Source: Muribaculaceae bacterium | Lineage (GTDB): Bacteria > Bacteroidota > Bacteroidia > Bacteroidales > Muribaculaceae | DNA: 64,000 nt | Assembly: GCA_022510425.1 (NCBI GenBank) | Contig: JAFLTO010000008.1 | Coordinates: forward strand, 1 to 64,000 | Direction of reading: 5' to 3' | Part shown: positions 24,140 through 48,588 of the stretch, piece after piece | How positions within the stretch are numbered: the first letter of the stretch is position 1 | Layout of the letters: every line of letters starts with the position of its first letter | Notes under the pieces: model-generated | What the model was told of the DNA's origin: nothing | The model's database searches: none | The model's input: only the letters and a program-made list of their open reading frames with translations | Position numbers and translations under genes: made by a program

Positions 24140-24145
24140 ATTATC

Positions 24146-25195: not shown

Positions 25196-25196
25196 C

Positions 25197-29011: not shown

Positions 29012-29012
29012 C

Positions 29013-30885: not shown

Positions 30886-33315
30886 TTATCTTTTACGTAT
30901 ATCTTTTTCAATATAAGTAAACTCAGTATCACCAATCAAGAAAGTCAATCCATTATATAGAATGATTTTTTTACCCGGAATGATATTTTTCTCTTTTATA
31001 TAGACTCCATCTTCCAAAGGTATAAGAATGCATGCGGCCCCCTTTTTCTTTATTTCTGCCTGAACAGGAGCTATATCATTACGGATATCCCATGAAATTT
31101 GCAAAGAGCAATCCACGCTCCTTCCTATTGTAACCACATAATTGGGATTATTCTTAAACCATTTGAATAATGCTACATCAATAGGCTTTATCCCTCCTGT
31201 CATTCTTAAAAAATAATGATGGGATCTCGGAGCTTCATAAGCTATACAGAGAGACAATGTTAAAGAATATATTATAAATATTATCAACTGGAATATTCTG
31301 TAATCAGAATTAGCACCCCTAAATTGTATGGCCCATAATAGCATGGCACAAACACCAAGAATCAGGCAAACCCACCATACATATGTGTTTATCCTTACAG
31401 GGGTTCTCCATGTGGAAGCAAGAACCAATATGAAAGCACACACCGACCAAGGAATCCAATCTACAAGATAAGCTATATCCCATTCCACTGTAAAACCTAT
31501 GATGGCAATAGTGAAAAATACAAAACAACAAGCTACCCCTGAAATAATTGAGCGGAAGAAAATTTCAAGCCATTGCCGTTTGATATCGGTAACATGTACT
31601 GTCAACCATGACAATCCTAAAGTCAGGAAGAAACCTAAAGTCAACCCAAAAGCAGGAGCCTGTCCCATAGGGTCATCATATTCTTGAATTGCAAGGGCTG
31701 CTTCCTTACTTCCTTCAGGCACTTCTGTGAAGGCAAAAATCAAGTCTTCAAACATTTCCCCCACTACCGTGTGAAGATGTGCGGTAAATACTACCCAGGC
31801 GCAACCTGCTGCAAATATGGATATCAAAATCCATTTTAAATAGAAAGGAGCATTCTCAGGATCAAATAGATGTTTGTAATTATAATAATGTGTTCCCTTT
31901 TTACATTTAGATCCATGTTCAGGACAATGATATGAATTCTCATCCCAACAATCCTTATGCATCGTATGATCGCATTTCACAACAATTTTATCACCTTTTT
32001 CAAATGGTGATTTACAATAGTAGCAACTTTCTCCCACCTGACGGTTGTTCACGCTCATATTGGGTCCGGTGTAATCCACTACATATTTATTCAGGAAATA
32101 TTTATATCTAACGAATGGCACTATCAATTGAAATATCAACCATGCAGCTAATAAAATCACTATAGTTATCACACATCCCTTGAGAATCACAAGAGGGGTG
32201 CTAAGACCGTTCACTATTACAGGTTTGTAGCTGGTTCCTTTAATAATCTTTGCTGTGGCCGTGGTTATTAGTTTCCCATCTTCTATATTATAAAATGAGA
32301 TTTTCAATTCATTTTCTGAACCACTATATATTTTTTTATCCGGATTCACAAAATCAAATCGATCATCCGCTATGCTGTCACCTTCAGATCCAAGAATAGT
32401 TTGTTGCAATTCGGTGTAATTGAAATGATCTTGATGTACTCCATTGGTTTTTTCAGCAATAATATTAAAAATACTATGCACTTCATCATTATCTGTTTCA
32501 TCATAATCGTCGGTGGAGTTGGAAACATTCACAAAATTCACCTTAATGTTTTTCCCTTGAAGCGTTTCAGCATAATCAAGCAATTCCTTCTTTTTCTGAA
32601 AATAGTCCTTTTCTATTGGATAATCATCTTCATCATAAACTTTAGCATCTGAAAAAACTACCAATGAAAGAGGATCTTTGGGGTCCCAAATTCCTTCACC
32701 GGATGCCAACTCCTTTTCTTTTGATAGAATTGAACTGAAAAGATACTTATCTTTTTTTTCAGTGGCTACGAAATAATTATCCAGTATATACGGGGTTAGC
32801 AATACAGTCTCAGAAATTTTACCATCCTCCATAAAAGCAACATAGAGATTGTCATGATTAAAGACGGTTGACATCTCAGCTATCATATTCTTCTGTAGGT
32901 CGACTAATGCTTGACTCGTGGTTAAATCTACTATGGAGAGAACTTTATATCCCATTTTGGCTATTTCTTCACTTCCTGTATTAGTAGCTTTCACCAAGTG
33001 TGATCGGGAAGATGCATCCAGAGGAACTCCGTTGATCTTTTCTTCAATTATAATTTTTGTTTTAGTACTGTCAGTAAGAGCATAAGGTCCAATATCACGA
33101 GTGATATGAGCAGTGATATAGAAGGTTTTGTGATCAGGTGAAAACACCACATCCTTAACTATCATTCCCGAGTCCTCTCCTTTCAAACCGAATTCCTCTT
33201 CAATATCTGAGAAATAAGCAGTCATATCATCGTTTTGAGAAATTTTATCGCAAGAAGAAAAAGAGATAAAAATTCCCAAAAAACAAATTAATTTATATAA
33301 TAGTCTCATTTTCAT
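30886..33315 (-). CDS. Membrane protein with vWA-like, RING-like and FHA-like parts
   Basis: An 809-residue protein, the last in the injection operon. It starts with a lipoprotein-like signal (FISFSSCDK, Cys22). Residues about 50-370 form an extracytoplasmic domain that resembles a von Willebrand A fold (DPLSLVVFSDAKV). Helix 1 spans 378-402. Then comes a zinc motif: C431-x2-C434-x13-C448-x-H450-x2-H453-x2-C456-x7-C464-x2-H467, a RING-H2 pattern whose eighth ligand is His. Six further spans follow (about 490-692). The C-terminus (about 722-806) looks FHA-like, with IGRSVDCSLQIS and LYNGLTFLIGDTEF. If the signal is outside, RING and FHA parts face the cytosol. RING proteins in eukaryotes recruit charged E2; here the E2 gene is two genes away. 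It overlaps its upstream neighbour by four bases. It may correspond to the TssR-type subunit, but I cannot confirm this. Confidence 0.8.
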   Translation of the reverse strand: MKMRLLYKLICFLGIFISFSSCDKISQNDDMTAYFSDIEEEFGLKGEDSGMIVKDVVFSPDHKTFYITAHITRDIGPYALTDSTKTKIIIEEKINGVPLDASSRSHLVKATNTGSEEIAKMGYKVLSIVDLTTSQALVDLQKNMIAEMSTVFNHDNLYVAFMEDGKISETVLLTPYILDNYFVATEKKDKYLFSSILSKEKELASGEGIWDPKDPLSLVVFSDAKVYDEDDYPIEKDYFQKKKELLDYAETLQGKNIKVNFVNVSNSTDDYDETDNDEVHSIFNIIAEKTNGVHQDHFNYTELQQTILGSEGDSIADDRFDFVNPDKKIYSGSENELKISFYNIEDGKLITTATAKIIKGTSYKPVIVNGLSTPLVILKGCVITIVILLAAWLIFQLIVPFVRYKYFLNKYVVDYTGPNMSVNNRQVGESCYYCKSPFEKGDKIVVKCDHTMHKDCWDENSYHCPEHGSKCKKGTHYYNYKHLFDPENAPFYLKWILISIFAAGCAWVVFTAHLHTVVGEMFEDLIFAFTEVPEGSKEAALAIQEYDDPMGQAPAFGLTLGFFLTLGLSWLTVHVTDIKRQWLEIFFRSIISGVACCFVFFTIAIIGFTVEWDIAYLVDWIPWSVCAFILVLASTWRTPVRINTYVWWVCLILGVCAMLLWAIQFRGANSDYRIFQLIIFIIYSLTLSLCIAYEAPRSHHYFLRMTGGIKPIDVALFKWFKNNPNYVVTIGRSVDCSLQISWDIRNDIAPVQAEIKKKGAACILIPLEDGVYIKEKNIIPGKKIILYNGLTFLIGDTEFTYIEKDIRKR

Positions 33316-34247
33316 ATTGAGGGTATGTCGTTATTTTCGTTCCTGTTGAAAGTATCCTGATATTTCTTTAGATTTTCTTTCATCTTTTTAGCAGCTTTGA
33401 TTTTACTTACTACCATATTTATGAACATTATTATAATGGCCACAGCTGCAATTCCAAGCAGATAATCTTTAATTCTCTGTATCCAGGGAACATATGCCAT
33501 TTCTTGAATCTTTACGGATTTATTTTTAAGAGTAGCATACCGATTATTGATATTGTCCATCTCCTGTTGGGAAACCTTAAACAATTGACTTGCTTGCTTT
33601 GCCTTATCATAATGACTTTGGATATCTGCAAAATTTATTTGTTCCTTCACTTTAAGGTTTTCAAGCTGTGGCGCTGTTTTGGAACTAAGCGATAGGTCCA
33701 TCGCTTTTCTGCCTAAGACTTTATAAATAGTATCTTGATCTGCAAGAAATTTTTCTGCAGCATTAAAGTCTTTGACAGCCTGAACTATATTTTGGCGGTT
33801 TGAAATTGAATCTTCAACAGCTGACTTAATGGTGTTAAAATCTTCCACCATATTCATTAATTCGTCGTCGGATGCAATAGATGGTTGTTCAGTCTGATAA
33901 AAAATATTCCATCTCAAATCCAAAGATTTCAACTTTCTTTCATTAGTTTTAACATCATCCGCAAGCCGTTTCATATAGGTCTTGGAAATTCGTTGGTCTT
34001 TAGTAATTTTAAATGGACGCGTATAAGAATTTTGCAATTCATTAAGTTCCTCTAAATACCCATCAATTTTTTGTTGCAATTCCAGGATTTTCATTGAAGA
34101 ATTATAATCAGCCTCGTCCAAGTCAGAATCATAAAAATTTTCTTCCTCAACAACAGGATCAGATCCGTGTTCTTGGGATTTTACAATCAAAGAACACGAT
34201 GATATTAAAGAAAAGATTATGATTAAGTTAAAGATGCACTTGGTCAT
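33312..34247 (-). CDS. Lipoprotein-like protein with coiled coil and C-terminal span
   Basis: A 311-residue protein. The N-terminus has a hydrophobic segment ending in the lipobox-like LISSCSL (Cys18). Residues about 45-240 are highly charged and helical (MKILELQQKIDGYLEELNEL and similar) and look like a long coiled coil. A second hydrophobic helix, LLGIAAVAIIIMFINMVVSK, is at about 265-284 and a short basic tail follows. The arrangement suits a periplasmic bridge anchored at both ends, a role that TssM and TssJ have in other type VI systems. No family is recognised. It overlaps the RING protein gene by four bases. Confidence 0.8.
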   Translation of the reverse strand: MTKCIFNLIIIFSLISSCSLIVKSQEHGSDPVVEEENFYDSDLDEADYNSSMKILELQQKIDGYLEELNELQNSYTRPFKITKDQRISKTYMKRLADDVKTNERKLKSLDLRWNIFYQTEQPSIASDDELMNMVEDFNTIKSAVEDSISNRQNIVQAVKDFNAAEKFLADQDTIYKVLGRKAMDLSLSSKTAPQLENLKVKEQINFADIQSHYDKAKQASQLFKVSQQEMDNINNRYATLKNKSVKIQEMAYVPWIQRIKDYLLGIAAVAIIIMFINMVVSKIKAAKKMKENLKKYQDTFNRNENNDIPSI

Positions 34248-34256
34248 AGACTCCTT

Positions 34257-35420
34257 TTATTTCTTTACTCCACAGGTGTTCCTGAAATAAGCTTCTGCCT
34301 GACGGAAAGTTGCCACTGCTTTTTTTTGCTCAGGAGTATTTCCTTGGTGTTTTCCTACAAGAACATTAACCTCTGTGATAATATCTTGGCATTCTTTAAC
34401 CAAGTCTTGTTTTTCAACGGCATCTTTACTTAGCAACCACCTGGAAACGTTCCTGTCAATTTGTCTGGAAAGTGTAGAAATTTCGGTTGGGTCTATATTA
34501 AATGATCCTCCGTTTCCTTCATCCTCATTTATTTTGAGGGAACAATTCAAACCTGAGATGGAATCTACATAGCAGTTATATTCATCCCATATTTCTTTAA
34601 GTTTGGGACACTGAGAGTCTGAATTTTTTATTTTGAATTGAGTCATTAATACATCCTTCAAATTATAAAAACTTGTGACTTCCGACTCCTTTTCCATTTC
34701 TAAAGTTTTATAGCTTCCTCTAAAATTCTGGTAAGCCTTTGCCACCGCTTCCAATGTATTCTGTGCTAATTCAGTTTCATTTTCTAACCCAAAGCAAGGG
34801 TTTCTAACGATTGTTATTTTATATTCAAGGTTTAGATTTTTCCCTGCAACAAATGTGTAATCATCAGGATGTTTTTTTGAAGGAGTTTTATCTAAAACAA
34901 ATACGTCTCCTAATTTCACCATTACATTTTTGCCATAGTTAGTGACATCGAAAGTTTGTTCGATATAATCATTCAGCATTTTATATTTCATTGCAACTGG
35001 TTGGAGACCTTGATATTCAATCCATTTTGTAAATATATAATCTTTTTGAGGCTTAGGAATTTTATTTCTGAAAATCTTGGGAAGGATAAACCTGCTTTTC
35101 TCCGGGTATTCCACAACATATGGCAGATCTTCCGGATCCAACCTGTTATGATGTATTATATTCCCATATCTTGTATCTTCTCTGAATACAAATAAATATC
35201 TATAAGAAATAAGACTTACTGTGAGCTGATTAGACTCTTCATTAAATATAAATTTTACCATTAGATCCATGTCTCTTGAGTCGGATGCAAGAGAAACATG
35301 ATCAGTATATGATTTATCGTAAGTAACCGTTATATCTCTAACTGATTGAGACTTTCCAAGTGAAAAGGAAAAAATCAAAAAGAAGATAATAAGTGTATAT
35401 TTATGTATTTTATAATTCAT
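34257..35420 (-). CDS. Exported protein of the injection system, unknown
   Basis: A 387-residue protein with a Sec signal peptide (TLIIFFLIFSFSLGKSQS, cut near residue 26). The N-terminal half of the mature form is beta-rich (about 27-220); the second half is helical with paired cysteines (NPCFGLENE, SQCPKLKEIW, EYNCYVDS, LNCSLKI, VKECQDII, RNTCGVKK), which could form disulfides in the periplasm. It is placed between E2 and the coiled-coil lipoprotein, inside the operon, so it is probably a periplasmic or outer-membrane part of the apparatus (a TssP-like role). I do not recognise the fold. Confidence 0.78.
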   Translation of the reverse strand: MNYKIHKYTLIIFFLIFSFSLGKSQSVRDITVTYDKSYTDHVSLASDSRDMDLMVKFIFNEESNQLTVSLISYRYLFVFREDTRYGNIIHHNRLDPEDLPYVVEYPEKSRFILPKIFRNKIPKPQKDYIFTKWIEYQGLQPVAMKYKMLNDYIEQTFDVTNYGKNVMVKLGDVFVLDKTPSKKHPDDYTFVAGKNLNLEYKITIVRNPCFGLENETELAQNTLEAVAKAYQNFRGSYKTLEMEKESEVTSFYNLKDVLMTQFKIKNSDSQCPKLKEIWDEYNCYVDSISGLNCSLKINEDEGNGGSFNIDPTEISTLSRQIDRNVSRWLLSKDAVEKQDLVKECQDIITEVNVLVGKHQGNTPEQKKAVATFRQAEAYFRNTCGVKK

Positions 35421-35423
35421 TTC

Positions 35424-36029
35424 TCAATCGAAAATCTTTTTTGATGTCTCACTTTCTGTTAACCAATCATTAGGTTCACCTTGCTCCCTAACCCATTGAG
35501 CCACTTTGAGATCTTCGGGATATGGAGGGTTTAATTCGGCATGATAAAGTTTATATCTCAAATAATCTGCAACCCTTGAAATTCCATCCGCTATGTCAAC
35601 GTAAGTATTGATCCGATTAAGACAGACGAGTCCTTTCATTTGACCGAAAAATCTAATATTAGGATGCCATGGAGTGTCTCTGTGCAAACCATCGGGAGAA
35701 AGTGTATCAAATTTAAAAATTGGTTGACCATCTACATCCGGAAAGGTTTCAGGAATGGTTATCTCCATGGTAAAATAATTATTAAAAACCGGAGTATTAA
35801 CTATTCCGGGTTCTCCTAATTTTTCAATATTTCTTACTCCACACAGGCAATTAATATGAAATTTTACCCAATAGGCAACTGGAAGTCCAACTGAATTCTC
35901 TTTGTTTACCCACACTTCAATCTCCTCATCTTTAGCAAAACGAGTTTCAATCTTCTGCCATTCATGCAAAAGACGCCTGTTTCTACCTTTGAAATCTTTT
36001 AGATTGTATTTGAAACTTTCTAATTCCAT
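35424..36029 (-). CDS. E2-like ubiquitin-conjugating (UBC-fold) protein
   Basis: A 201-residue cytosolic protein. After an N-terminal basic helix and a beta-sheet ending in the Pro-rich YFTMEITIPETFPDVDGQPI (the position of the E2 PxxYP-like strand) comes WHPNIRFF with HPN at 122-124, and then GLVCLNRI with Cys136. In classical E2 enzymes HPN(I) is followed by G-x-(I/V)-C-L with the active cysteine eight residues after the Asn; here the distance is twelve, so the loop is longer by four. The C-terminal helices resemble the E2 tail (DGISRVADYLRYKLYHAELNPPYPED). It would accept the ubiquitin-like protein from the E1-like enzyme by thioester exchange. The gene lies six bases after the ubiquitin-like gene. 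Confidence 0.88.
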   Translation of the reverse strand: MELESFKYNLKDFKGRNRRLLHEWQKIETRFAKDEEIEVWVNKENSVGLPVAYWVKFHINCLCGVRNIEKLGEPGIVNTPVFNNYFTMEITIPETFPDVDGQPIFKFDTLSPDGLHRDTPWHPNIRFFGQMKGLVCLNRINTYVDIADGISRVADYLRYKLYHAELNPPYPEDLKVAQWVREQGEPNDWLTESETSKKIFD

Positions 36030-36035
36030 TCAAAC

Positions 36036-36353
36036 TCATCCCGGAATCGGATCCGGTATCAGATAAAGGGTATCACCATTATGAATATTATAATCTTCAA
36101 GTGTCTGGTCTGTTCTTCCTATTCTAGGACGCAAAACCCTGATTTCATGCACTTCCGGGTCTTCCTTTCCTAAGAAATAGTCTATGGGAGCTCCGGAGTC
36201 ATCAATAGAAGGGAAATCAAAAATCAATTTCCCATCTGCACCGATGGCATGACGCAGGTTATTAACAAGTGTACTCAAAGAAGCTTCAGGGTTGGTAACT
36301 CTAAACTTCACCTTTTTATTATGATAAATTATATTCAGAAAATATTCTTCCAC
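36036..36353 (-). CDS. Ubiquitin-like beta-grasp protein with C-terminal glycine
   Basis: A 105-residue protein started by GTG at 36353 (an in-frame stop lies close upstream). The fold agrees with ubiquitin: beta hairpin (YFLNIIYHNKKVKFRV), helix (SLSTLVNNLRHAI), and the C-terminal block RTDQTLEDYNIHNGDTLYL, which parallels the ubiquitin stretch TLSDYNIQKESTLHL. The tail is IPDPIPG and the very last residue is Gly105, so the tail is ready for adenylation without proteolysis. The middle loop (about 44-70) is longer than in ubiquitin. It follows tssF by 48 bases and precedes E2 by six. No isopeptidase gene of the JAB kind is near, so reversal of the tag is not explained. Confidence 0.88.
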   Translation of the reverse strand: MEEYFLNIIYHNKKVKFRVTNPEASLSTLVNNLRHAIGADGKLIFDFPSIDDSGAPIDYFLGKEDPEVHEIRVLRPRIGRTDQTLEDYNIHNGDTLYLIPDPIPG

Positions 36354-36401
36354 GTTTATTTGATTACGATAAATTAGTTATTAAGTAGTAGGGACGAAAG
36401 T

Positions 36402-38102
36402 TTATTCGTCAATATTAATATTTACTCTTATGGGATAGATACCGGTTGATCTCATCTCTATCATTTTCTGTAAAAGAAATTCCAATAAGGATAACTTTCT
36501 TCCAAGAATTTTTTTTACCATAGATGAGCCTTTTAATGAAATTTCCACATACATTTCATATCCGGGTCCATAATTTTCTTTACTTTGACGATGAACAACT
36601 TTAATATTTCTAATAGTTTCTTCACCAATAGAATATCGTCGTTGAAGTTCCTTAATGCAAAAAAGTTTTATATCGGAAGGAGTAACTATCCTGTCATTAG
36701 TAAGAATGTAATATCTTAATAGCGTTTTAGAAATAGAATCGCTACTCACTTCATCAAATCCATGTGTAGGAGAGCCTATTTGCACTGTAGCATTATTATT
36801 AAGATTCCCGGGTGTTTGAATTTTTGAATTACTTGAAATAACAGAATTGACAGCAGCTCCTGAAGTTGTCAGATAATTCACTGTCAAACTAAATGAAGAA
36901 TCTTTCATCTTGTTTTTTTCGTGCAAAAGCAAATAAACTCCCGCTATATTTTTAAGGTAATCTTTTTGTGAAATCTTAATCATATGATTCACCAATTCCT
37001 GGAGATTAAATATGAGTCTGTCTGATTTCATTTCTTCAAGATTCCTGAAAGCATAAAAATCAGTGTGATATTTATTAACTATGGCACTCAGTAGTTTAAT
37101 CAGATTTCCCTGATTGAACCTATCGCCTGAAACACGTCTTACTTCCAGTTCGGTAGCTGAATATATTTGATCGCTTAACGGATGTATCAATTGGAGAAAT
37201 TGTTGAGAATTTTCATTCTTGTTTGATTCCGTATAACCGGCAATTCTCGCAATTGGGTGAGATGAAGTCAATGTCACTTCCTTTACACTTGCATTTACTA
37301 AAAAAATTGAATTCAAAACAAGGTTATTCACCTCGAAAATAAAATCTTCTTTTATTCCTGTAAATTCAAATATGAACTCTAATTTAGTAAATTCCTCCTC
37401 ATTTGTGGATATTTCAAAATCATCAATCCAGAAGTTTCTGATATTTTGTTGGGCAAATAAATCAAATGGAAGCATGGACCCAGAGAAATATTCTCCATGA
37501 TTATAGGTAAGAGAATCCGGTCTGAAATATTTGGAATAAGGCAGTTCGGTTAAATTCCAAGGCTTAATTAGTTGACATTTACATCCTTTGATCTTGACAT
37601 TTAAAGTGCGGAAATCTAAATCTTTCACTGCAAAAGAGAAGCCGTTTAAACTTGTAATGGGCCGTGGAAAATTGAATTCCATTTTCCATCTTCTTCCATC
37701 AATTCTTTCACAGTCACCTAAAGAAACATTAATAACTTTAGAATCAAATAAAGGTATAAATGAATATTTATCCAATCTGAATTCTGTGTCACCTGCAACA
37801 TGAGTTTCCACCAAAGAGTCAGAGGGTTGTGTCGAAACAACCACTGAAGCAGGTATAGCATGACCAATTTCGAATGGAGTCATCAATCTGGCGAAATCCT
37901 CAGTGATTTCCTCTTTAAGACGTGTTATGTCATTATCAAACTCATTCTCTTGGTAAGCCAAAGCACCAATCAACAATGAGAAAACCGGATCTTTCTCAAT
38001 ACCTTCCAGAGCATCCGCAAAGTCACTCTGCCTCCATATTTCCAACGACTCCTTTAAAAGTTCATTGGCTCGTTCCCTTGTTTCAAATATAGTTTGCTTC
38101 AT
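36402..38102 (-). CDS. tssF: TssF baseplate protein
   Basis: A 566-residue cytosolic protein of the baseplate wedge. The N-terminal region has the family pattern in which an Asp-Pro and a helix come first (GIEKDPVFSLLIGALAYQEN, then EITEDFARLMTPFEIGHAIP), typical of the VasA/TssF group. The remainder is beta-rich. In the wedge, TssF pairs with TssG and attaches TssE and TssK. It overlaps tssE by four bases and is followed by the ubiquitin-like gene. Divergence from proteobacterial TssF is high, so the call rests on the N-terminus and context. Confidence 0.85.
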   Translation of the reverse strand: MKQTIFETRERANELLKESLEIWRQSDFADALEGIEKDPVFSLLIGALAYQENEFDNDITRLKEEITEDFARLMTPFEIGHAIPASVVVSTQPSDSLVETHVAGDTEFRLDKYSFIPLFDSKVINVSLGDCERIDGRRWKMEFNFPRPITSLNGFSFAVKDLDFRTLNVKIKGCKCQLIKPWNLTELPYSKYFRPDSLTYNHGEYFSGSMLPFDLFAQQNIRNFWIDDFEISTNEEEFTKLEFIFEFTGIKEDFIFEVNNLVLNSIFLVNASVKEVTLTSSHPIARIAGYTESNKNENSQQFLQLIHPLSDQIYSATELEVRRVSGDRFNQGNLIKLLSAIVNKYHTDFYAFRNLEEMKSDRLIFNLQELVNHMIKISQKDYLKNIAGVYLLLHEKNKMKDSSFSLTVNYLTTSGAAVNSVISSNSKIQTPGNLNNNATVQIGSPTHGFDEVSSDSISKTLLRYYILTNDRIVTPSDIKLFCIKELQRRYSIGEETIRNIKVVHRQSKENYGPGYEMYVEISLKGSSMVKKILGRKLSLLEFLLQKMIEMRSTGIYPIRVNINIDE

Positions 38103-38557
38103 TTCCAGACTTTCAAAGTTGTGGTGTAGTTATAATCCTCTCCGGTGGCTTTTACTTGACCTTTTATATTAATATAAATTAATCGATTTTCTCTCACATA
38201 GGTCATTGATACAGAAACATCTTGTAGGCGCGTCTCATATTTGTTCACAGAAGTCTTCAATTCGGATGCAAAGGTATTTAGATTTTTAGATGAACCTGAA
38301 ATTTTCTTTTCATAAAGACCTCCTTTACCTTCAAAAATTTCAGCCGTATCCGTGGAATTGTATACAACTCCATCCTTTTCATTAAATATCTCAAATTTAA
38401 GATTATTGAATATGAAACCAAACTCAGGGTCTACCGCCGAAGAATAGCAAGGAGTCGATAACAATAGATCCAAATGTCGGTCTATAGCATTTTTTTGACT
38501 TTGTTCTCCGTCAAGTTTCCCTTTTTCTATTTTTAATGGCAATGAAATATTTCTCAT
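38099..38557 (-). CDS. tssE: TssE, gp25-like baseplate protein
   Basis: A 152-residue protein of the gp25/lysozyme-like group that starts the sheath at the baseplate. N-terminal layout agrees with the family (ISLPLKIEKGKLDGEQSQKN, RHLDLLLSTPCYSSAVDPEFGFIF). The usual Glu-Phe of the sheath-start motif in gp25 appears as EFGF. The C-terminal beta strands follow (SVSMTYVRENRLIYINIKG). It lies between tssK (four bases) and tssF (overlap). It should contact the first sheath ring of TssB-TssC. Confidence 0.85.
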   Translation of the reverse strand: MRNISLPLKIEKGKLDGEQSQKNAIDRHLDLLLSTPCYSSAVDPEFGFIFNNLKFEIFNEKDGVVYNSTDTAEIFEGKGGLYEKKISGSSKNLNTFASELKTSVNKYETRLQDVSVSMTYVRENRLIYINIKGQVKATGEDYNYTTTLKVWK

Positions 38558-38560
38558 AGC

Positions 38561-39697
38561 TTAAATAGTTGGCATGAACTCATCCTCTTCTTCCGGTGCA
38601 ATATATAGTGCTTCATAAAGTTTTTTATAAAGGTCATCAAAGAGTTTCGGTTCTAAAATCGTGACAAGATCAGCCCCAATTAATTTCTGTATTTCATCAA
38701 GTTTTTCCTTCAGATAATTTGGAAGAAATTCCTTAATTTTTTCTGTTATATCTTTATATACCTCTTCTTTTATCTCTTTCGGTAGTTTTTCAAGCAATTC
38801 CGGTTGAAGTTTTTCATACAATTCTTTTTTAGCCTGTTCGAGAAGCGCATTAAAGTCAATTGTATTATCTTCCAATACCACTTTGTCTAAAATCCTTTTA
38901 GCACCCTCAAGAAATGACTCCACAAAAACAAGCCATCGTTCTATATCATAATAATCAGGCAATGGTATATCTTTATGAGTTTCTGAATATGGAGTCACTA
39001 TAAAATAATCTATAGCATACGCCATTTCCTGTATCAATGAAATAAAATCTGATACATTCGATTCCGGATTTAAACTCTTCAGGATAAAAAGATAACGTAA
39101 TAAACTTCTTTTCCCGTCACCATCTTCGAGATTTGAATGTGAAGTTATTGTTTCGAGACTTTCTATGTATTTTTCTTTAAATTGAAAATATTTTTTATTC
39201 TCTGAAATAATTAAAGAAGGGACGATATAATCAGGATATAAACTTAAAACACCATCTTTCGCTGTGAACTTAGCTACAGGAAAGAGATCTTTCTTTTTAA
39301 GATCCTCTAAACTATATAGAGCAAAAGTATAAACATGATTATAGAAAGGCACTCCTTCCCTTTCAAACTCATGCCGTTCATCGGATATATTGACTCCTAA
39401 ATAATACTCCTCTCCATAAAGTATAGGGATATTAACCACTACTTCCTGTGCAGCACTAATAATTTTCCCCGATGGTAGTATGGCAATACACTTGAAATCG
39501 GTAATCTCAAATGTATTTTTTACAAAGACACCATTACAATTAAACTCAGAACCGGGAAGAAGACCAAGTTGATTCCTTCCTAAAGCAGCTATTAATGCAA
39601 GTCTTTGCTTGAAATCAAGAGAATATTCTAATTGTCGGAATGTCTCAGCAGTCAGTTCCATTCCCGACATCCAGTTTATTTTATCGTTTATATCCAT
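38561..39697 (-). CDS. tssK: TssK baseplate-to-membrane connector
   Basis: A protein of about 379 residues if it starts at MDINDKINWMSGMELTAETF (39697); an earlier in-frame ATG at 39742 would overlap the tssG stop. The opening W-x-x-G-M-x-L-(x)-F resembles the TssK N-terminus. A beta-rich shell region spans about 40-180, a helical bundle follows, with a long charged coiled coil (residues about 270-350) and an acidic end (APEEEDEFMPTI). In well-studied systems TssK links the baseplate to the membrane complex (TssL/TssM); here that partner must be one of the novel membrane proteins of this operon. Confidence 0.83.
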   Translation of the reverse strand: MDINDKINWMSGMELTAETFRQLEYSLDFKQRLALIAALGRNQLGLLPGSEFNCNGVFVKNTFEITDFKCIAILPSGKIISAAQEVVVNIPILYGEEYYLGVNISDERHEFEREGVPFYNHVYTFALYSLEDLKKKDLFPVAKFTAKDGVLSLYPDYIVPSLIISENKKYFQFKEKYIESLETITSHSNLEDGDGKRSLLRYLFILKSLNPESNVSDFISLIQEMAYAIDYFIVTPYSETHKDIPLPDYYDIERWLVFVESFLEGAKRILDKVVLEDNTIDFNALLEQAKKELYEKLQPELLEKLPKEIKEEVYKDITEKIKEFLPNYLKEKLDEIQKLIGADLVTILEPKLFDDLYKKLYEALYIAPEEEDEFMPTI

Positions 39698-39716
39698 ATT
39701 CTTTAGCTTCCAAATT

Positions 39717-40502
39717 TTAATTGATCCGGGTGTTATAATCAAGAGTCAGATTATTATTTAAAAACGTTTTCTCACTATAATCTTTTATCATGATTTCACA
39801 TTTCATCTCAGCCGGAATAAACCATTCAGCAAGAAATTCCCTTAAGGTTTCCACTTGATTAGAAAGATTTTTATAATTTTCATTATCAAGTTTTTCAATT
39901 AATAATTCATATCGGATCAATGGAATCCATTTTTTTGTAGAATCAGTCCGACTATATCTTCCCGTATAGACAATTACCTTACACTCAAATTGGGATTGCA
40001 ATATATTTTTTATCAAGCCGAAATCAGCCCTCCGTATACTTATATAAGGTAAAAGAGTTGCCCATTCTTTTACATAAGTATTTTCTATTTTCTTATATTC
40101 AATACCGAAATAAGTTTTCAAAATATATTCAAGTTTATCATTTAGCAATTGCGAAATTTCTCTTTCAATTTTCAATTTTCTTCTGAAAGAAACTGTATCA
40201 AACGGAAGGAATGCCTCTTGTAATACTCTTTTTCTCCTTTCTATTTCCTTATGTTTTTCTTTTTTATCACCACTCTGCAATTCATCAGCCGATGAAATAA
40301 AACCTTGAGGCAATAGTTTCAAAAATCCGTCTCGAGCAAGAGAAATCTCCGGTCGTTCAGTATCAACCGACAGGGCATCATTATTATAGTTACGATAAAA
40401 TGTGCCCTCATTACGCACTATCCAGCGTTCCTCTAACTCCGGATAAAGATAATTGAGCATCATCTCAGCTCCAATTTCAGGTATGTTAATATCAAAGCTC
40501 AT
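39717..40502 (-). CDS. tssG: TssG-like baseplate wedge protein
   Basis: A 261-residue cytosolic protein with a charged, mainly helical first half (ERWIVRNEGTFYRNYNND, EKHKEIERRKRVLQEAFLPFD) and a beta-rich second half that ends NNNLTLDYNTRIN. Position between an assembly-like enzyme and tssK, and the size, point to TssG, the partner of TssF in the wedge. Similarity to classical TssG is weak by eye, so this is inferred mostly from gene order. It overlaps the E1-like gene by four bases, which ties the conjugation gene to the baseplate genes. Confidence 0.65.
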   Translation of the reverse strand: MSFDINIPEIGAEMMLNYLYPELEERWIVRNEGTFYRNYNNDALSVDTERPEISLARDGFLKLLPQGFISSADELQSGDKKEKHKEIERRKRVLQEAFLPFDTVSFRRKLKIEREISQLLNDKLEYILKTYFGIEYKKIENTYVKEWATLLPYISIRRADFGLIKNILQSQFECKVIVYTGRYSRTDSTKKWIPLIRYELLIEKLDNENYKNLSNQVETLREFLAEWFIPAEMKCEIMIKDYSEKTFLNNNLTLDYNTRIN

Positions 40503-41644
40503 TGAATCTCTATGAAATAGTCCCTTTCTCTATAAATACCGTTTATTCCACATTTCATGAAAAGTATGTCATGTTCCGGAATCCCAATTTCTTCCAAAGT
40601 CATGTCAAGATAAGGGGAATCCCTGTGAAACTTCCTGATTTCATTCTGATAATAAGAACTTATAGGTTTTTTGCTTAGTTCAGGCGATTGATTTATGAAA
40701 TTTTCCACAAATCTGCCGGGAAGCATCACACTAAATTTTTCATCCGTTTCTTTGTCACAGATAAAATCTACAAAACAATCGTTAATAAGGTTTAAACTTA
40801 CACTATATGCACCTAATTGTATTTTTGTTAGCCACAATGCTTCCCTTATAGTTGTTTTTGAAGATATCGTAGACTTTATCACAGGTTTCCAGTACTCATG
40901 AACAGAACAATCATCATCAAAAGCTGATATTCCAACAGTTGAGAAACTGAAATATTTTCCATCATATATCAACATTTTTCCTGACAAAGTCTCAAAAATT
41001 GGATTATCATTATATTTATTATGTATAAGTTTCAAAGCTTCTTGTACTTGAATGGAGCCAATTATTGAAGCTATCAAGGATGTTGTAGGGGCACTTTCTG
41101 TCTTTAATGCTCTTCTGATATTCCCGGCACAAGAAAAACGTCTCTTCATATTATCCATTTCCTCATTCGAAAGAGTGCATGCATAGCAATTTTTACCCGG
41201 TTCAAATATCTTTACAATGCCTTCCAATTCTGATATTCCTCCATCAATCCATGGAACACCAACTCGCATACAAAGACGGTTAATGCAGTATCTTGCCCAC
41301 CGGTTATCTACACAACCAATCACTACGTCCATATCCTTGATCAAACCCAAACCTACATCTGCCGAAATATCACCATTTATGACAGTTAGGTTTATTTCCG
41401 GATGGATTTTTCTTATTACATAAGCTACGACATCCACCTTTGGTAATCCAACTGAATCTTGAAATTCATTAAAGAGAATAGAACGTTTAAGATTATCCGT
41501 TTCAACGTTGTCAAAATCAACAAGGACAATGTTACCCACTTTCATGAGCGCCAGATTTTTCAGCACCTCATTTCCTAAGGCACCACAACCCACGACCATG
41601 ACCTTGGCTGCATTGAGTATATCCTTTTTGAAACAGTCGCTCAT
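40499..41644 (-). CDS. E1-like adenylating enzyme (ThiF/UBA3 type)
   Basis: A 381-residue enzyme of the E1 superfamily. The adenylation domain has VVGCGALGNEVLKNLA (Gly19-x-Gly21-x-x-Gly24), the acidic LVDFDNVETDNLKRSILF (Asp43, Asn51, Arg54), Lys69 in GLPKVDV, and GCVDNRWAR (Asp113). A CYAC pair (153, 156) is followed at the proper distance by RRFSCAG with Cys172, which matches the active cysteine region of UBA3 and UBA2 (G-x-x-x-C-x-x-C...F-x-x-C). The C-terminal 130 residues are a separate domain ending LTLEEIGIPEHDIL-like text (TLEEIGIPEHDILFMK), perhaps the ubiquitin-fold part that recruits E2. It should adenylate Gly105 of the ubiquitin-like protein and bind it as a thioester. Gene order: 238-residue unknown, this gene, tssG. 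Confidence 0.9.
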   Translation of the reverse strand: MSDCFKKDILNAAKVMVVGCGALGNEVLKNLALMKVGNIVLVDFDNVETDNLKRSILFNEFQDSVGLPKVDVVAYVIRKIHPEINLTVINGDISADVGLGLIKDMDVVIGCVDNRWARYCINRLCMRVGVPWIDGGISELEGIVKIFEPGKNCYACTLSNEEMDNMKRRFSCAGNIRRALKTESAPTTSLIASIIGSIQVQEALKLIHNKYNDNPIFETLSGKMLIYDGKYFSFSTVGISAFDDDCSVHEYWKPVIKSTISSKTTIREALWLTKIQLGAYSVSLNLINDCFVDFICDKETDEKFSVMLPGRFVENFINQSPELSKKPISSYYQNEIRKFHRDSPYLDMTLEEIGIPEHDILFMKCGINGIYRERDYFIEIQ

Positions 41645-44188: not shown

Positions 44189-47100
44189 CTACATTTTATT
44201 TAATCCCGTTTTTAAATTATTGAGAGCATCATTCAACATGATTACTTCTGCAGAAGCTTCATTATCCTTGCTTTCAAAATCATCTCCGTTGGCTGAAGGT
44301 GTTAATGTTTTTCCCGAATTATCCGAAATTAATATTTTGCCCTTTCCTTCAGCTCGGTTATTCCAAACATTTATACCATCTATGAATTTTTTTATCTGTT
44401 CGTTCATTTTATTTTCCCAGAAGTCTCCTATCGAAAATTTCTCTTCTCTAAGTTTTATTGAGAAATTGGAAACAGCTGTTGTCCATAACCCATAATCTTC
44501 AATATCTGCATTATTATCAAATTCGATAGTATATTGGGGGAATAACTTTCCACTACTGTTCATCAAAGATTTCCAAAGACTTCTTTTCATTTTTGACGTA
44601 TATTTTCCAATTGGGATGGCATGCAAATGTCCTCTGAGCCAATTTAAGGCCTTATTAGAGTCATCTATATCAGATATTAAATTTACATAATCCTCATTCT
44701 TCTTTAATTCTTCCTCAAAATCGTTTTGAAGTTTATTTGATAGTTTTTTACCATTAATCTTAGCAAATTCATCTCTTACCTTAATATACTGGGAAGGTTT
44801 TGTTGACATATGGCGATATCCCGTTGAACTTAAATTAATGGCATTCCATATTTCCTCAAACCGATCATTAAGTTCATTAAGATACTGTTGAAAATTTTCA
44901 TTTTCAATTTCTTGTGCAATCCTTTGTTCTTCTTCTCTTTCTCTTCGCGTCTCTTCATCCTCAGGAGCTGCGTTCCGATTTTCCAAATGAATTGGCAAAA
45001 AACCCTGCACAATCACATCATTAATATCATTTTGCGTAAATGGCCGTTTTGTGGTTTCATAAAGCTTAGTTATTAGCTGATCAATAGTAGTAATATTTTT
45101 TAACACAGGATTTGGTCCCATATATTGATTCTTAAAACCGGCTATCAAGTTTAGTGTTTCTGAGTTTTTTGCAATCCAAATATTATATATACCTTCAACC
45201 AATCTATTAATCTCAACAATATAATTAGCTAATGTGCGGTGAATGTCATTCACCTTATTTTTCTTTATGTCATCGTCAATAACATTATACTTATAAAAAT
45301 CCGTGTATGCATTTCTTGGAATTTCAGCTTTACCCTCTCCCGCTTCAAGTTTTAGGAATCCATGAGACTTAATTGACAGGGTGCCATTCACCGGACGTAT
45401 GACAACTTCAAAAAGTGTCCTGACAAGATCAAGGTCTATCGGCATCAAGCTGGAAATCAAATAATCAGCAGCTTTATTTTTTAGGGCTTTTGATAAATTG
45501 GAACGGGTTTTTCCTTCTTCCACAAGACCTGAGAATAGATAGTTACCTTGTTCTATATTTGCACCTGATGTTATATTGACTTTATTTGAGGCACTTATAT
45601 CAACATTTTTCCCTGCTATCTTGATATTGCCATTGGGTGCATTAATTGTTATACCTGTAAATGCACTTAAGCTTATATCCCCTAAAGGAGAGGATATTTT
45701 TATCGCTCTTTCATCACTTGACGCCGAAATGCTATAAAATCCAAATGCATCTCCAATATCTATACCTCCGGTCATTTTGTCAATATTAGAATCTGTCACA
45801 TCCGGAATATATGAACTAAGCCAAAATGATGCCGTGCTAAGCAAAGGGGAGAAGGAACTCATTAATCTTGTTAAACCCGTGGATTCGCTTAGTTCTCCGA
45901 CTCCGTCGCTTGGGTCTTTAAAACGTATCATATGACCGAATTTTGATACTAAAACCCTTCTTCCTTTCCCTGCAGGGGCTGTATGATTTTTTGAATATAA
46001 AGCTCCTACTACATAAGGACGTTCCACATTATCATTTTCAAAATTAACCAACACCTCATCACCCGGTTCCGGTTCAAAATAAATTCCCGAACCACCCGAA
46101 GCAGAAGGACTTGCCATCCTTACCCAAGGAGATATTCCCTGCTTTAGTATATTTTGATATTTATCCCATACTTCTTCCTCTTTCTTAGGTATGGTGATAT
46201 AAGAATCATAAGGAATTTTGTCATCACTATTCTGCCATGGATATTTTATCTTTACTCTTCCTTGCCTTTTAGGGTCTGCTGTATCAACTACAAAAGCAGT
46301 TTGAGGCCCTGATTTCCTGAAAACTTCTTTATCAAGCAAAGGAGGATAAGAAATATAATAATAAACTTTCTCAGTGTTGCTTGTTGTGCCGGAATCAACT
46401 CTGTATAATGGTATGCCTTTAAATCTCTGAGTTGAAGTACTGCCAGTTAATTCTACTTCTACTTCTGTAATTATGTAAATTTCGGAATTAAAGGAGGGTA
46501 TTTTCACGATCTGACCTAACTTAAGGTTTTTCAGGGAAGCACCCATGTTGACCTTTATTACTTTGCTTGATTGAAGCTCTTCATATTTTTTAATTTCAGA
46601 ATAATATTCTAAAGTGGTCCACCTTTCCGATTTATTTTCTGACGAAGGAACCACTACATCCGGTTCAGATTTAAAGGAGGTTCCATTTATATTGCTTATA
46701 TTTGATGGTGAGTTTGTTTGTATAAATCTTTCTTTGCCACGATCACTCATTGTGCTATTATACATTAAGTTTAAAGCTCCTAACTCAAGATATTCAATCG
46801 CAGCATTGGTAATTAATTCAAACAACGAAGTGGAATTTAACACTGTGGAGATCGCATGCGTAATATGTTTTCCTTCACTTCCCCTATTTAATTCAACAAA
46901 CTTTGTACCCCCAAATCCATCTCTATATAGAGGCATGAAGAATTCGTCATGAGCTATCTCAGAATTATAATAATATCCATTTTTATTGAAATTGGTGTCA
47001 CCGGGATATGTTATCGACTTTCTTTCTCCCGTGTTTTTATAAATTTGGTTCACATTATAACCTCCTGAAATCTCAGCATGATTATTGGTAGAAGCTGATT

Positions 47101-48094
47101 GTGATATCGTTACACCTTCTGCCAATGAATTTCGAGAATAATCTTCCACTTTTAATACTCCATGGGTGGAATTCGCCATTTCTATTTCTTCAAATCCTGT
47201 AATTTCAATTGGACTTCCAATATTCTTAATTACATATTTTGATTTTGTTTCACCTGAAAATTCATCTTCAGAATCAAACTTATCCTTATCTAAAGTCAAT
47301 GGAAGTCCAATCTTTAATTTGCCATCTTCAAAATATAGGAACTCCCCGCATCTGTTGGCAGTCCTTACCAAAAAGTCATAAAACGTTTCATTATATTGAA
47401 CCAGATAGGGATGGATAAATTCACTTTGAACCTTGAATTTATATTCTTTATCATTTTCAATTATGGTTTTTTCATAGGTTCCATCCGCGAGATGCTGTAA
47501 TAAGGTTGTCTCAGTTTGGGTATTTCCGGAGGTAGACTTATCTTTGTCTATTTCTATTGTTATGTTATGCCTGGCACTTTCTGAATTTTCTTTGTAATAA
47601 TTTAAAGGGAGAATGAAACGATTACAGCTTTCTATTAATTCTCTTCTCAATTTTCTTCCTGAATATGCTTGGCTATATTTATCAATAGCCATCAATTTAT
47701 CAGCACTGAAAATTTTGAGGGTCAATACTATCATTGTTTTTGAAGAATCTTTTTTCATTTTTGGTATAACCTCAAAAACAAAAAGATTGATCATCTCACC
47801 TGCCCCATCCGCATTAACAGATGCCGGTTTACCAAGAAACATTTTGCTTAATACCTCTGCAGTGGGAAAAACATCGTCCGCCGTGTCTGTTTTAGTAAAC
47901 GATAAGTATGCCGTTATTTCATTGGGTGAATATATCTTTTTCTTTATTTCCAATCCACTAAGCTCTAATTTAAAAGTATATTCAATGCCGTCTACCTGAA
48001 ACGACTTAGCCACAGCAGTAGTTTTGACTTCAAGATTTTCTGTTGCTTTGTTAGCGTCTGTATTATTTATATATAGAATTTTTAAACTTGCCAT
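44189..48094 (-). CDS. vgrG: VgrG-like spike protein with long C-terminal extension
   Basis: A 1301-residue protein. Residues about 1-590 form the gp27-like hub (TSSTQRFKGIPLYR near the end), then the gp5 OB-fold from about 595 (PQTAFVVDTADPKRQGRVKI) with the usual WVRMASPSASGGSGIYFEPE and GDEVLVNFEN. A beta-helix like DUF2345 follows (VDISASNKVNITSGANI, near 820-860). The last 440 residues are helical (EGIYNIWIAKN, PAPEDEETRREREEEQR-type text) and are no VgrG part; they are probably an effector or docking domain. Typical VgrG has 600-800 residues, so this is nearly double. It lies between the divergent Hcp-like gene and the spike-like gene. Confidence 0.9.
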   Translation of the reverse strand: MASLKILYINNTDANKATENLEVKTTAVAKSFQVDGIEYTFKLELSGLEIKKKIYSPNEITAYLSFTKTDTADDVFPTAEVLSKMFLGKPASVNADGAGEMINLFVFEVIPKMKKDSSKTMIVLTLKIFSADKLMAIDKYSQAYSGRKLRRELIESCNRFILPLNYYKENSESARHNITIEIDKDKSTSGNTQTETTLLQHLADGTYEKTIIENDKEYKFKVQSEFIHPYLVQYNETFYDFLVRTANRCGEFLYFEDGKLKIGLPLTLDKDKFDSEDEFSGETKSKYVIKNIGSPIEITGFEEIEMANSTHGVLKVEDYSRNSLAEGVTISQSASTNNHAEISGGYNVNQIYKNTGERKSITYPGDTNFNKNGYYYNSEIAHDEFFMPLYRDGFGGTKFVELNRGSEGKHITHAISTVLNSTSLFELITNAAIEYLELGALNLMYNSTMSDRGKERFIQTNSPSNISNINGTSFKSEPDVVVPSSENKSERWTTLEYYSEIKKYEELQSSKVIKVNMGASLKNLKLGQIVKIPSFNSEIYIITEVEVELTGSTSTQRFKGIPLYRVDSGTTSNTEKVYYYISYPPLLDKEVFRKSGPQTAFVVDTADPKRQGRVKIKYPWQNSDDKIPYDSYITIPKKEEEVWDKYQNILKQGISPWVRMASPSASGGSGIYFEPEPGDEVLVNFENDNVERPYVVGALYSKNHTAPAGKGRRVLVSKFGHMIRFKDPSDGVGELSESTGLTRLMSSFSPLLSTASFWLSSYIPDVTDSNIDKMTGGIDIGDAFGFYSISASSDERAIKISSPLGDISLSAFTGITINAPNGNIKIAGKNVDISASNKVNITSGANIEQGNYLFSGLVEEGKTRSNLSKALKNKAADYLISSLMPIDLDLVRTLFEVVIRPVNGTLSIKSHGFLKLEAGEGKAEIPRNAYTDFYKYNVIDDDIKKNKVNDIHRTLANYIVEINRLVEGIYNIWIAKNSETLNLIAGFKNQYMGPNPVLKNITTIDQLITKLYETTKRPFTQNDINDVIVQGFLPIHLENRNAAPEDEETRREREEEQRIAQEIENENFQQYLNELNDRFEEIWNAINLSSTGYRHMSTKPSQYIKVRDEFAKINGKKLSNKLQNDFEEELKKNEDYVNLISDIDDSNKALNWLRGHLHAIPIGKYTSKMKRSLWKSLMNSSGKLFPQYTIEFDNNADIEDYGLWTTAVSNFSIKLREEKFSIGDFWENKMNEQIKKFIDGINVWNNRAEGKGKILISDNSGKTLTPSANGDDFESKDNEASAEVIMLNDALNNLKTGLNKM

Positions 48095-48105: not shown

Positions 48106-48588
48106 TTAATCGTTTGACATTATTAAAACGGAAGCCGACGTTTCTTCACCGTATGTTATACGGCTTAAGAGCATCTTGATTTGCAGTTGTTTCATTGAAT
48201 CATTTTTATTATCAGACGCAAACATTTCTTCTGTTTCAACAACATAACCGCGTGCCACAAAAGAGTCTTCATATTCTTTTATTTCTCCATATTGGTCAAA
48301 AGTCACATTAAAAAGTAATGATATCTCTTCAGGAGAAGTCTTACGCATAGCATTCAGATAAAACTTTGCAATCGATTCATCATAATTTTTCAATCTCAGT
48401 GTCAAAAGAGTGGTGTGACAGTTACCATAAGGAATTCCTACAGCATCCCGACTTCTCATGCTTTCATATTCATAAGATTGCACGGTAGCTCCCTGATAAC
48501 GTCTCAGAGGTTCTTTATTTTCATATACATTTGTATTGAAAACAACTGATTTCAAATGATCTGAACTCAATACTGCCATTGATTTCAT
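48106..48588 (-). CDS. Divergent Hcp-like tube protein A
   Basis: A 160-residue beta-rich protein. The pattern of strands (VVFNTNVYENKEPLRRYQGATV, TLLTLRLKNYDESIAKFYLNAM) resembles the Hcp (TssD) fold, but the sequence is distant from the two main Hcp genes. It overlaps the next Hcp-like gene by four bases and precedes vgrG. A place between tube and spike points to a dedicated adaptor ring, comparable with the first tube ring or tail-tip disc of phage tails. No enzymatic motif. Confidence 0.7.
   Translation of the reverse strand: MKSMAVLSSDHLKSVVFNTNVYENKEPLRRYQGATVQSYEYESMRSRDAVGIPYGNCHTTLLTLRLKNYDESIAKFYLNAMRKTSPEEISLLFNVTFDQYGEIKEYEDSFVARGYVVETEEMFASDNKNDSMKQLQIKMLLSRITYGEETSASVLIMSND

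What the first reader, a model, noticed from the sequence alone, without database searches (positions are those of the whole stretch)
35424..41644. A ubiquitin-like conjugation pathway (Ubl, E2, E1, RING) embedded in a contractile injection operon
Seen: three neighbouring proteins show the key motifs of a ubiquitin-like pathway: a 105-residue beta-grasp protein ending in Gly with a ubiquitin-like TL-DYNI-TL-L block; a UBC-fold protein with HPN 122-124 and Cys136; an E1 with GxGxxG, Asp43, Asn51, Arg54, Lys69, Asp113 and a UBA3-like Cys172. A fourth gene adds a RING-like zinc motif. They lie between and overlap tssG, tssF and other type VI baseplate genes. Known: bacterial E1/E2/Ubl operons occur in antiphage systems such as CBASS and Bil, and comparative genomics has listed further ones, but I do not recall one wired into a type VI operon. 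Inferred: tagging of a structural part, effector or sheath is part of assembly, loading or recycling.
Basis: partly seen in the sequence, partly recalled or inferred. Interest (0 to 1): 0.95.

Follow-up and report, generated by a model that had tools for sequence, protein, structure and literature searches.

The report
Ubiquitin-like pathway in T6SS operon
Some gut and marine Bacteroidota carry, inside the operon for their molecular harpoon (a type VI secretion system), the genes of a ubiquitin-like tagging pathway with near-eukaryotic enzymes, which suggests that a bacterial injection machine is controlled by protein tagging.

Summary
E2 (35424-36029), Ubl (36036-36353), E1 (40499-41644) and a membrane RING/FHA protein (30886-33315) lie in one minus-strand T6SS gene row. 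Catalytic residues are invariant: E2 HPN and Cys136 in 64 of 64 rows, Ubl Gly105 in 63 of 63, E1 ATP-site residues and Cys172 in 58 of 58. E2 and Ubl models are confident. A genome scan gave 63 related loci, all Bacteroidota; 59 hold T6SS core genes within 10 kb. Forty also encode a membrane-anchored protein with an intact JAMM (JAB isopeptidase) motif; the window's clade lacks it. Two T6SSs without the cassette carry kinase, PP2C and FHA genes instead. The RING/FHA protein's layout parallels PpkA. Best reading: a Ubl-conjugation switch, counterpart of the T6SS threonine-phosphorylation pathway. Activity and target are untested. The cassette also occurs near eCIS-type genes and near srfB, so it is modular. 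The capped literature lists showed no paper on the link; one key paper (Burroughs 2011) could not be read.

The parts
35424..36029 (-). E2 (UBC-fold) conjugating enzyme, 201 aa, HPN 122-124, Cys136
36036..36353 (-). Ubiquitin-like (YukD-like) modifier, 105 aa, ends in Pro-Gly
   Evidence: a Neolewinella relative passes the Pfam YukD cut-off
40499..41644 (-). E1 activating enzyme, 381 aa, ThiF fold, Cys172, C-terminal UFD-like region (weak evidence only)
30886..33315 (-). Membrane protein: signal peptide, extracytoplasmic region (vWA-like in relatives), TM, RING (C431,C434,C448,H450,H453,C456,C464,C471), six TM peaks, FHA; predicted E3 and scaffold
33312..34247 (-). 311-aa protein with N-terminal hydrophobic stretch and C-terminal TM, conserved beside the RING gene in part of the family
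34257..35420 (-). 387-aa protein, exported by eye (signal-like start), between E2 and the 311-aa gene; weak match to the JAB-protein profile (E=0.0011)
36402..38102 (-). TssF (by homology to the gene at that place in canonical T6SSiii loci; no Pfam or NCBIfam name)
38099..38557 (-). TssE / gp25
   Evidence: (GPW_gp25 5.4e-9)
38561..39742 (-). TssK (start probably downstream of the listed TTG)
   Evidence: (TssK 2e-4, below cut-off)
39717..40502 (-). TssG; its start overlaps the end of the E1 gene by 4 bases
44189..48094 (-). VgrG/TssI spike
48585..48998 (-). TssD (Hcp) variant
50429..50818 (-). DUF4280 protein (PAAR-like spike tip; role recalled)
50918..51316 (-). TssD (Hcp)
51349..51741 (-). 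TssD (Hcp)
51832..53193 (-). TssC sheath (PF17541, 1.1e-102)
53233..53697 (-). TssB sheath (T6SS_VipA 0.028, below cut-off; by homology to canonical loci)
53721..56189 (-). ClpV/TssH-type AAA+ ATPase (two AAA modules and ClpB D2-small; ClpV name by place in the operon)

Best explanation
The cassette is a dedicated ubiquitin-like conjugation system that controls a Bacteroidota T6SS lacking a TssN match from the inner face of the cell envelope, the counterpart of the PpkA/PppA/Fha threonine-phosphorylation pathway. Shown from sequence: E1, E2, Ubl and RING with intact active sites, tied to the T6SS baseplate genes. Inferred: the E1 adenylates the Ubl C-terminal Gly and passes it through Cys172 to E2 Cys136. 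The RING of the membrane protein, whose extracytoplasmic (in relatives vWA-like) domain would sense the envelope or contact, brings E2-Ubl to the base of the machine, and the FHA domain holds a phosphorylated or structural partner. Conjugation to a membrane-complex or baseplate subunit then licenses or positions assembly. In relatives a membrane-anchored JAB enzyme removes the tag; the window's lineage has lost it or uses another way.
For: Catalytic residues invariant in 64, 63 and 58 rows. The order Ubl-E2 ... RING ... E1-TssG-TssK recurs: Ubl within 300 bp of E2 in 55 of 56 loci where profiles found both, E1 within 100 bp of TssG in 45 of 52 loci holding both. A JAB-type gene beside the RING gene in 40 of 63 loci, JAMM pattern intact in 40 of 40, a TM peak before it in each. 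RING protein of the window by hydropathy: signal, long extracytoplasmic region, TM, RING, six TM peaks, FHA, so RING and FHA lie on one side; vWA matched in relatives, not in the window protein itself. PpkA has an extracellular vWA and transmembrane topology (PMC3224232, passages); PpkA phosphorylates Fha and recruits T6SS parts, PppA reverses it (PMC12607579, abstract and passages). Two T6SSs without E1/E2/Ubl carry kinase, PP2C and FHA genes (G283; G294), while those three kinases and two phosphatases have 0 matches in the 63 cassette loci within the held flanks; the five queries find their own kind.
Against: No activity, conjugate or target is shown. The cassette also occurs without a T6SS gene in view: beside srfB in G052 and near eCIS_core and PAAR genes in G532, with the same cassette in G626; L071, L078 and L081 show no T6SS core gene in their flanks either. 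The window genome shows no JAB, so tagging there may not be reversible. In five Saprospiraceae/Lewinella loci the RING region has lost most zinc ligands. FHA did not reach 0.01 in L064 and L015. Module replacement rests on two genomes, of which only G294 groups with the cassette clade in the TssC tree; G283 falls on the side of the TssN-bearing rows. Lack of TssN is not specific to the cassette: 6 of 13 other TssC-bearing genomes also show no match. Kinase absence was tested only within flanks of at most 10 kb.
Confidence: 0.5

Rival explanations
1. The Ubl is a loading tag: conjugation to effectors, Hcp or spike parts marks cargo for the needle, and the JAB enzyme of relatives removes the tag before firing.
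For: In many loci the Ubl gene follows the spike, PAAR-like and cargo-like genes; three loci carry an extra Ubl-domain protein with a different C-terminus upstream (L058, L059, L063); the copy in G532 neighbours eCIS_core proteins.
Against: E1 lies within 100 bp of the baseplate gene TssG in 45 of 52 loci holding both; RING and JAB proteins look membrane-anchored, not part of the spike.
Confidence: 0.2
2. The cascade acts in turnover: it tags spent sheath, tube or baseplate parts for disassembly or proteolysis.
For: Ubiquitin-type tags direct turnover in eukaryotes (established knowledge); a tag would suit a one-shot machine. No tool result supports it directly; the nearest is the presence of the cascade itself.
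Against: A ClpV-type ATPase is present for recycling; no proteasome-like family was listed for the 30 window proteins scanned.
Confidence: 0.12
3. An anti-phage Ubl defence cassette that sits in T6SS loci by chance or as passenger.
For: Described bacterial E1/E2/Ubl operons act in defence (CBASS: PMC10097602, passages; Bil: PMC11354881, passages, defence role recalled); distribution is patchy (1 of 37 genomes of the genus).
Against: 59 of 63 loci have T6SS core genes close by, E1 abuts TssG in 45 of 52 loci holding both, genes are interleaved with baseplate genes, and no PADLOC model matches the E2, Ubl, RING or JAB proteins given.
Confidence: 0.08
4. Non-covalent role: Ubl as a structural part like YukD or the TssN ubiquitin-like domain, with enzymes as relics.
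For: TssN of T6SSiii has a ubiquitin-like cytoplasmic domain that may dock the baseplate (PMC10781749, passages), and TssN has no match here; Ubl resembles YukD.
Against: E1 and E2 active sites and the terminal Gly are invariant, which relics would not keep; JAMM pattern intact in 40 of 40 JAB-type proteins.
Confidence: 0.06

Closest known systems
Threonine-phosphorylation control of T6SS (PpkA, PppA, Fha)
   Same: membrane writer with extracytoplasmic vWA (here vWA in relatives), an FHA element, and an eraser enzyme in relatives, encoded with the machine
   Different: writer is E1/E2/RING and eraser is JAB, so the mark would be a protein rather than phosphate; no kinase or PP2C match in the held flanks of the 63 loci
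Bacteroidota T6SSiii (TssB-TssC-TssD-TssE-TssF-TssG-TssK with TssNQOPR)
   Same: TssC over the PF17541 cut-off, homologous baseplate and tube
   Different: more divergent TssC, no TssN match in the 5 tested cassette genomes with TssC, Ubl cassette present
Bacterial E1/E2/Ubl operons: CBASS type II (Cap2/Cap3), Bil/Bub
   Same: E1, E2, a protein with conserved C-terminal Gly, JAB protease in relatives
   Different: E1 and E2 are separate genes; the E1 profile scores eukaryotic enzymes above BubCD in the PDB (UBA7 3e-36 against 9e-13); E2 has the HPN motif; RING present; T6SS context
Prokaryotic RING/E1/E2/YukD-like Ubl neighbourhoods of Burroughs, Iyer and Aravind 2011 (recalled; not held)
   Same: as I recall the abstract: RING E3s with E1 (with UFD), E2, JAB and YukD-like Ubls
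   Different: I could not check whether that paper contains this family or notes a T6SS link

Membership tests
Ubiquitin-like conjugation system (E1-E2-E3-Ubl) | E1 adenylation residues and catalytic Cys | tested here: met
   58 of 58 rows; ThiF 5.6e-51
Ubiquitin-like conjugation system (E1-E2-E3-Ubl) | UBC fold with HPN and catalytic Cys | tested here: met
   64 of 64 rows; PDB profile match 4.3e-11; model. Structure-to-structure search not available
Ubiquitin-like conjugation system (E1-E2-E3-Ubl) | beta-grasp modifier with terminal Gly | tested here: met
   Gly in 63 of 63 rows; 58 of 62 relatives end exactly at the Gly, 4 have 4-5 residue tails, (three longer extra Ubl-domain ORFs left out); model
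Ubiquitin-like conjugation system (E1-E2-E3-Ubl) | RING-type E3 with eight zinc ligands | tested here: met
   window has all eight; full pattern in 51 of 59 relatives; single ligands in 54-59 of 60 rows; the 8 exceptions are L046, L053, L074, L076-L079, L081
Ubiquitin-like conjugation system (E1-E2-E3-Ubl) | deconjugating protease | tested here: not met
   JAB-type gene in 40 of 63 relatives but no match in the window genome with PF14464 or PF01398
Ubiquitin-like conjugation system (E1-E2-E3-Ubl) | isopeptide conjugates | not testable with these tools
   needs biochemistry
Bacteroidota T6SSiii | TssC of the T6SSiii family | tested here: met
   PF17541 1.1e-102
Bacteroidota T6SSiii | TssN membrane core | tested here: not met
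   PF17555: 0 of 5 cassette genomes with TssC (one of them, G278, only 68% complete); 7 of the 19 genomes searched positive
Bacteroidota T6SSiii | TssO, TssP, TssQ, TssR | tested here: inconclusive
   no such name among the Pfam matches of 30 window proteins; no dedicated search
CBASS type II | CD-NTase with Cap2 (fused E2-E1) and Cap3 | tested here: not met
   E1 and E2 are separate genes; PADLOC models match only the E1 among 8 proteins given, and the 25 shown of 32 are all named E1-E2; no CD-NTase name among 30 window proteins
Bil/Bub | tandem-Ubl BilA, E2 of CEHH type, JAB, E1 | tested here: not met
   single Ubl, HPN-type E2; feature list from PMC11354881 passages
Threonine-phosphorylation pathway | Ser/Thr kinase and PP2C phosphatase in the T6SS locus | tested here: not met
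   0 matches in the held flanks of 63 loci; no such name among 30 window proteins

The most novel reading that the evidence does not exclude
A five-part writer/eraser cassette (Ubl, E1, E2, vWA-RING-FHA membrane E3, membrane JAB) is a general control module of bacterial contractile injection machines, swapped against kinase/phosphatase/FHA modules, and its enzymes are among the closest bacterial counterparts of the eukaryotic E1-E2-RING-JAB set. Ubiquitin-type signalling would then have had a pre-eukaryotic job in switching an injection machine.
Probability: 0.3. Interest if true: 0.97.

Novelty: new variant of a known kind. Interest (0 to 1): 0.9.

Why it matters
The bacterial E2-dependent Ubl systems that I know of work in anti-phage defence, and the post-translational control of T6SS that I know of is mainly phosphorylation. 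A conserved cascade with a membrane-anchored RING, and in relatives a JAB enzyme, in the T6SS operon would add protein conjugation as a control layer of an injection machine. Named isolates in the set (for example Xylanibacter muris L064, Bacteroides mediterraneensis L025, Neolewinella xylanilytica L077) would give a setting to study near-eukaryotic ubiquitin chemistry in bacteria.

Tried and rejected
Structure comparison against solved folds was tried and never ran; I used profile searches of PDB sequences instead. Anti-phage defence was considered and set low because of the operon interleaving and the PADLOC result. Host-directed secretion of the enzymes was set aside by argument, not by test: E1, E2 and Ubl sit in a baseplate operon and Lewinella relatives have them too. 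A link of the E1 C-terminal domain to the Ubl fold is only suggestive (hhalign P 0.018, probability 2.6). In-vivo expression of TssD in B. mediterraneensis An793 (PMC11204068, abstract and passages) cannot be assigned to this T6SS, since that genome has two TssC genes.

Selection and dropped rows: the 63 loci come from one E2-derived peptide pattern, so they are not an unbiased sample. In the order sample I dropped three weak hits: G282 and G140 and G088 (E 9e-4); the 13 other TssC genomes include G309, a match over 42 profile positions at a contig end. In the phylum sample of 395 the alignment found three genomes besides the window's own: G532, G626 and the weak G648. Three extra Ubl-domain ORFs without the Gly end (L058, L059, L063) were left out of the Ubl alignment. 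The TssC tree left out G309, four flank rows duplicating other rows, and flank ORFs of 380 aa or less, and used the 30 loci given; it is rooted at the midpoint only, and long branches were flagged. TssC was not checked in L040 and L059, which hold TssD and VgrG in their flanks. JAB was matched by Pfam in the proteins of L042, L064 (below cut-off), L077, G052 and G532; the other members of the 40 rest on profile homology and the JAMM pattern.

Literature: searches were seen as listings, several capped (20 of 56, 15 of 215, 10 of 82, 8 of 52, 12 of 99, 12 of 108), and no listed title or abstract start reports this link; one search found no paper. PMC1779556, PMC3482391, PMC7159879, PMC10781749, PMC11354881, PMC3224232 and PMC10097602 were read as passages only. 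Burroughs 2011 is not held.
Full report
What is there. The window is part of a 2.9-Mb genome, Bacteroidales by inference from its relatives. On the minus strand from about 57.3 kb down to 30.9 kb runs one dense gene row: a 377-aa protein, a ClpV-type ATPase, TssB, TssC, two TssD, a DUF4280 protein, a PEGA protein, a third TssD, a 160-aa protein, VgrG, a 595-aa and a 238-aa protein, E1, TssG, TssK, TssE, TssF, Ubl, E2, a 387-aa protein, a 311-aa protein with a TM, and the RING/FHA membrane protein. TssF, TssG and TssK are named by homology: profiles built from this family hit the matching genes of canonical T6SSiii loci (6.6e-21, 1.4e-19 and 1.8e-17 in L108), and NCBIfam names the canonical TssG, TssK and TssE, though below its cut-offs. 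E1 and TssG overlap by four bases.

The enzymes. The E2 keeps HPN and Cys136 in 64 of 64 aligned rows. Its profile finds eukaryotic E2-25K/UBE2K first in the PDB (4.3e-11), and the model is confident. The Ubl keeps its Gly in 63 of 63 rows: of 62 relatives 58 end exactly there and 4 have tails of four or five residues. Its model has the strand and helix order of a beta-grasp. The E1 keeps G19, G21, G24, D43, N51, R54, K69, D113 and C172 in 58 of 58; its profile scores eukaryotic E1s (UBA7 3e-36) far above bacterial BubCD (9e-13) in the PDB. The fourth protein has a signal peptide, a long extracytoplasmic region that matches vWA in relatives but not in the window, a TM near residue 390, a RING with eight ligands, six further TM peaks by hydropathy, and an FHA domain. 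Six TMs between RING and FHA put both on one side, presumably the cytosol.

Conservation. One scan of public genomes with an E2-derived pattern gave 63 loci, all Bacteroidota: Bacteroidales of several families plus Saprospiraceae/Lewinella. Within the held flanks (10 kb or to the contig end) E1 is found in 57, RING/FHA in 59, Ubl in 56 by profile plus 6 by eye, TssG in 54 and TssK in 51. At least one T6SS core gene is present in 59 of 63; the exceptions are L071, L074, L078 and L081. TssC lies in the flank of 20 loci; the genomes of 41 of the other 43 were searched, and 36 of 40 genomes have it, the four without being those of L031, L071, L074 and L081. In an evenly drawn sample of 393 genomes of the order, 6 have this E2 and 5 of those have TssC, against 13 of the other 387 (Fisher p 6.6e-7). 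In the genus it is found in 1 of 37 genomes, so it is patchy.

A deconjugase that the window lacks. In 40 of 63 loci a gene beside the RING gene encodes a protein of the JAB type with a TM before the domain (Pfam JAB 2.2e-7 in Neolewinella, 7.7e-5 in L042, Prok-JAB 0.002 in L064), and all 40 keep the pattern HxHP...S..D. The other 23 are 18 loci with the E2-to-RING stretch in view, four cut by contig ends (L031, L049, L051, L066) and the rearranged L081. The window and 17 of the 18 form one supported set in the E2 tree (with L031); the eighteenth is L047; the label needs two changes. The window genome has no match to PF14464 or PF01398. So many relatives have writer and eraser, the window only the writer, as far as these searches show.

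Which T6SS. TssN, the proposed core of the T6SSiii membrane complex with its own ubiquitin-like domain (PMC10781749, passages), matches in 7 of 19 genomes searched but in none of the five with both the cassette and TssC; it is also unmatched in 6 of the 13 other TssC-bearing genomes, so its absence does not single out the cassette. In a TssC tree of 63 rows, 45 of 49 cassette rows group in one supported clade with a single other row, G294; G082 and three Lewinella rows fall elsewhere. G294 and G283, both without E1/E2/Ubl in the stretches read and without a TssN match, carry Ser/Thr kinase, PP2C and FHA genes near their T6SS genes; G283's TssC falls on the side of the TssN-bearing rows. The same kinase and phosphatase queries give no match in the held flanks of the 63 cassette loci.

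Mechanism. PpkA of Pseudomonas aeruginosa combines transmembrane topology with an extracellular vWA (PMC3224232, passages); PpkA phosphorylates Fha and recruits T6SS parts and PppA reverses it (PMC12607579, abstract and passages). The cassette repeats this layout with a RING in place of the kinase, in relatives a JAB in place of the phosphatase, and FHA kept. I therefore read it as a Ubl-based control of T6SS assembly at the membrane. The layout is shown; conjugation, target and effect are inferred.

Limits and counter-evidence. The cassette is not bound to T6SS. G052 has E1-Ubl-E2-JAB-RING beside srfB (PF07520, 1e-213) and a PF10139 protein (SrfC-like, name recalled), with no T6SS profile match on its 43-kb contig and no TssC match in the genome, though a PF17482 sheath gene lies on another contig. 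G532 has the cassette, without a RING match in Pfam, near PAAR and eCIS_core proteins; G626 has the same cassette but its neighbours were not scanned. Both have a PF17482 sheath gene on the same contig, 23 and 46 kb away, and no TssC match (whose controls were silent, but the same search found TssC elsewhere). G648 has a distant E2 and a JAB gene among unrelated genes. In five Saprospiraceae/Lewinella loci the RING region has lost most ligands. Burroughs et al. 2011 (recalled, not readable here) described prokaryotic RING/E1/E2/Ubl neighbourhoods and may include this family, so I claim the T6SS wiring and the likely control role as the new part, not the existence of such enzymes in bacteria.

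Noticed in passing
G294:C1 (L103-L105) and G283:C4 (L109, L110): Bacteroidota T6SS loci without a TssN match that carry Ser/Thr kinase, PP2C phosphatase, FHA and (G283 by Pfam, G294 by eye) FHA-trypsin proteins, a threonine-phosphorylation-like module.
   Followed up: partly
G532:C65 (L160, L161) and G626:C11 (L162, L163): E1-Ubl-E2-JAB-vWA/FHA cassette; in G532 near PAAR and eCIS_core proteins; in both a sheath gene on the same contig.
   Followed up: partly
L016, L106, L107 (G052:C685): Cassette beside srfB and a PF10139 gene, with a second JAB protein and a tandem-Ubl protein that continues past an Ile-Ala-Gly, like a cleavable precursor.
   Followed up: partly
L058:5050-5766, L059:8073-8453, L063:8692-9609: Extra Ubl-domain proteins whose C-terminal Gly is replaced by another sequence, upstream of the normal Ubl gene.
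   Followed up: no
L076, L077, L078, L079, L081: The RING region lost most zinc ligands; its look is U-box-like, which is recalled and not tested.
   Followed up: no
L025 (Bacteroides mediterraneensis An793): This strain's TssD was reported at high level in the chicken caecum (PMC11204068, abstract and passages), but the genome has two TssC genes, one canonical and one of the cassette type.
   Followed up: partly
window 41659-42375: 238-aa protein with a sub-threshold match to ribosome recycling factor (5.4e-5), found by profile in 13 of 63 loci; role unknown.
   Followed up: no
window 23033-29645: TetR regulator, outer-membrane efflux, HlyD, ABC ATPase and two ABC-2 permease genes lie just beyond the T6SS locus and look like an efflux operon.
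   Followed up: no
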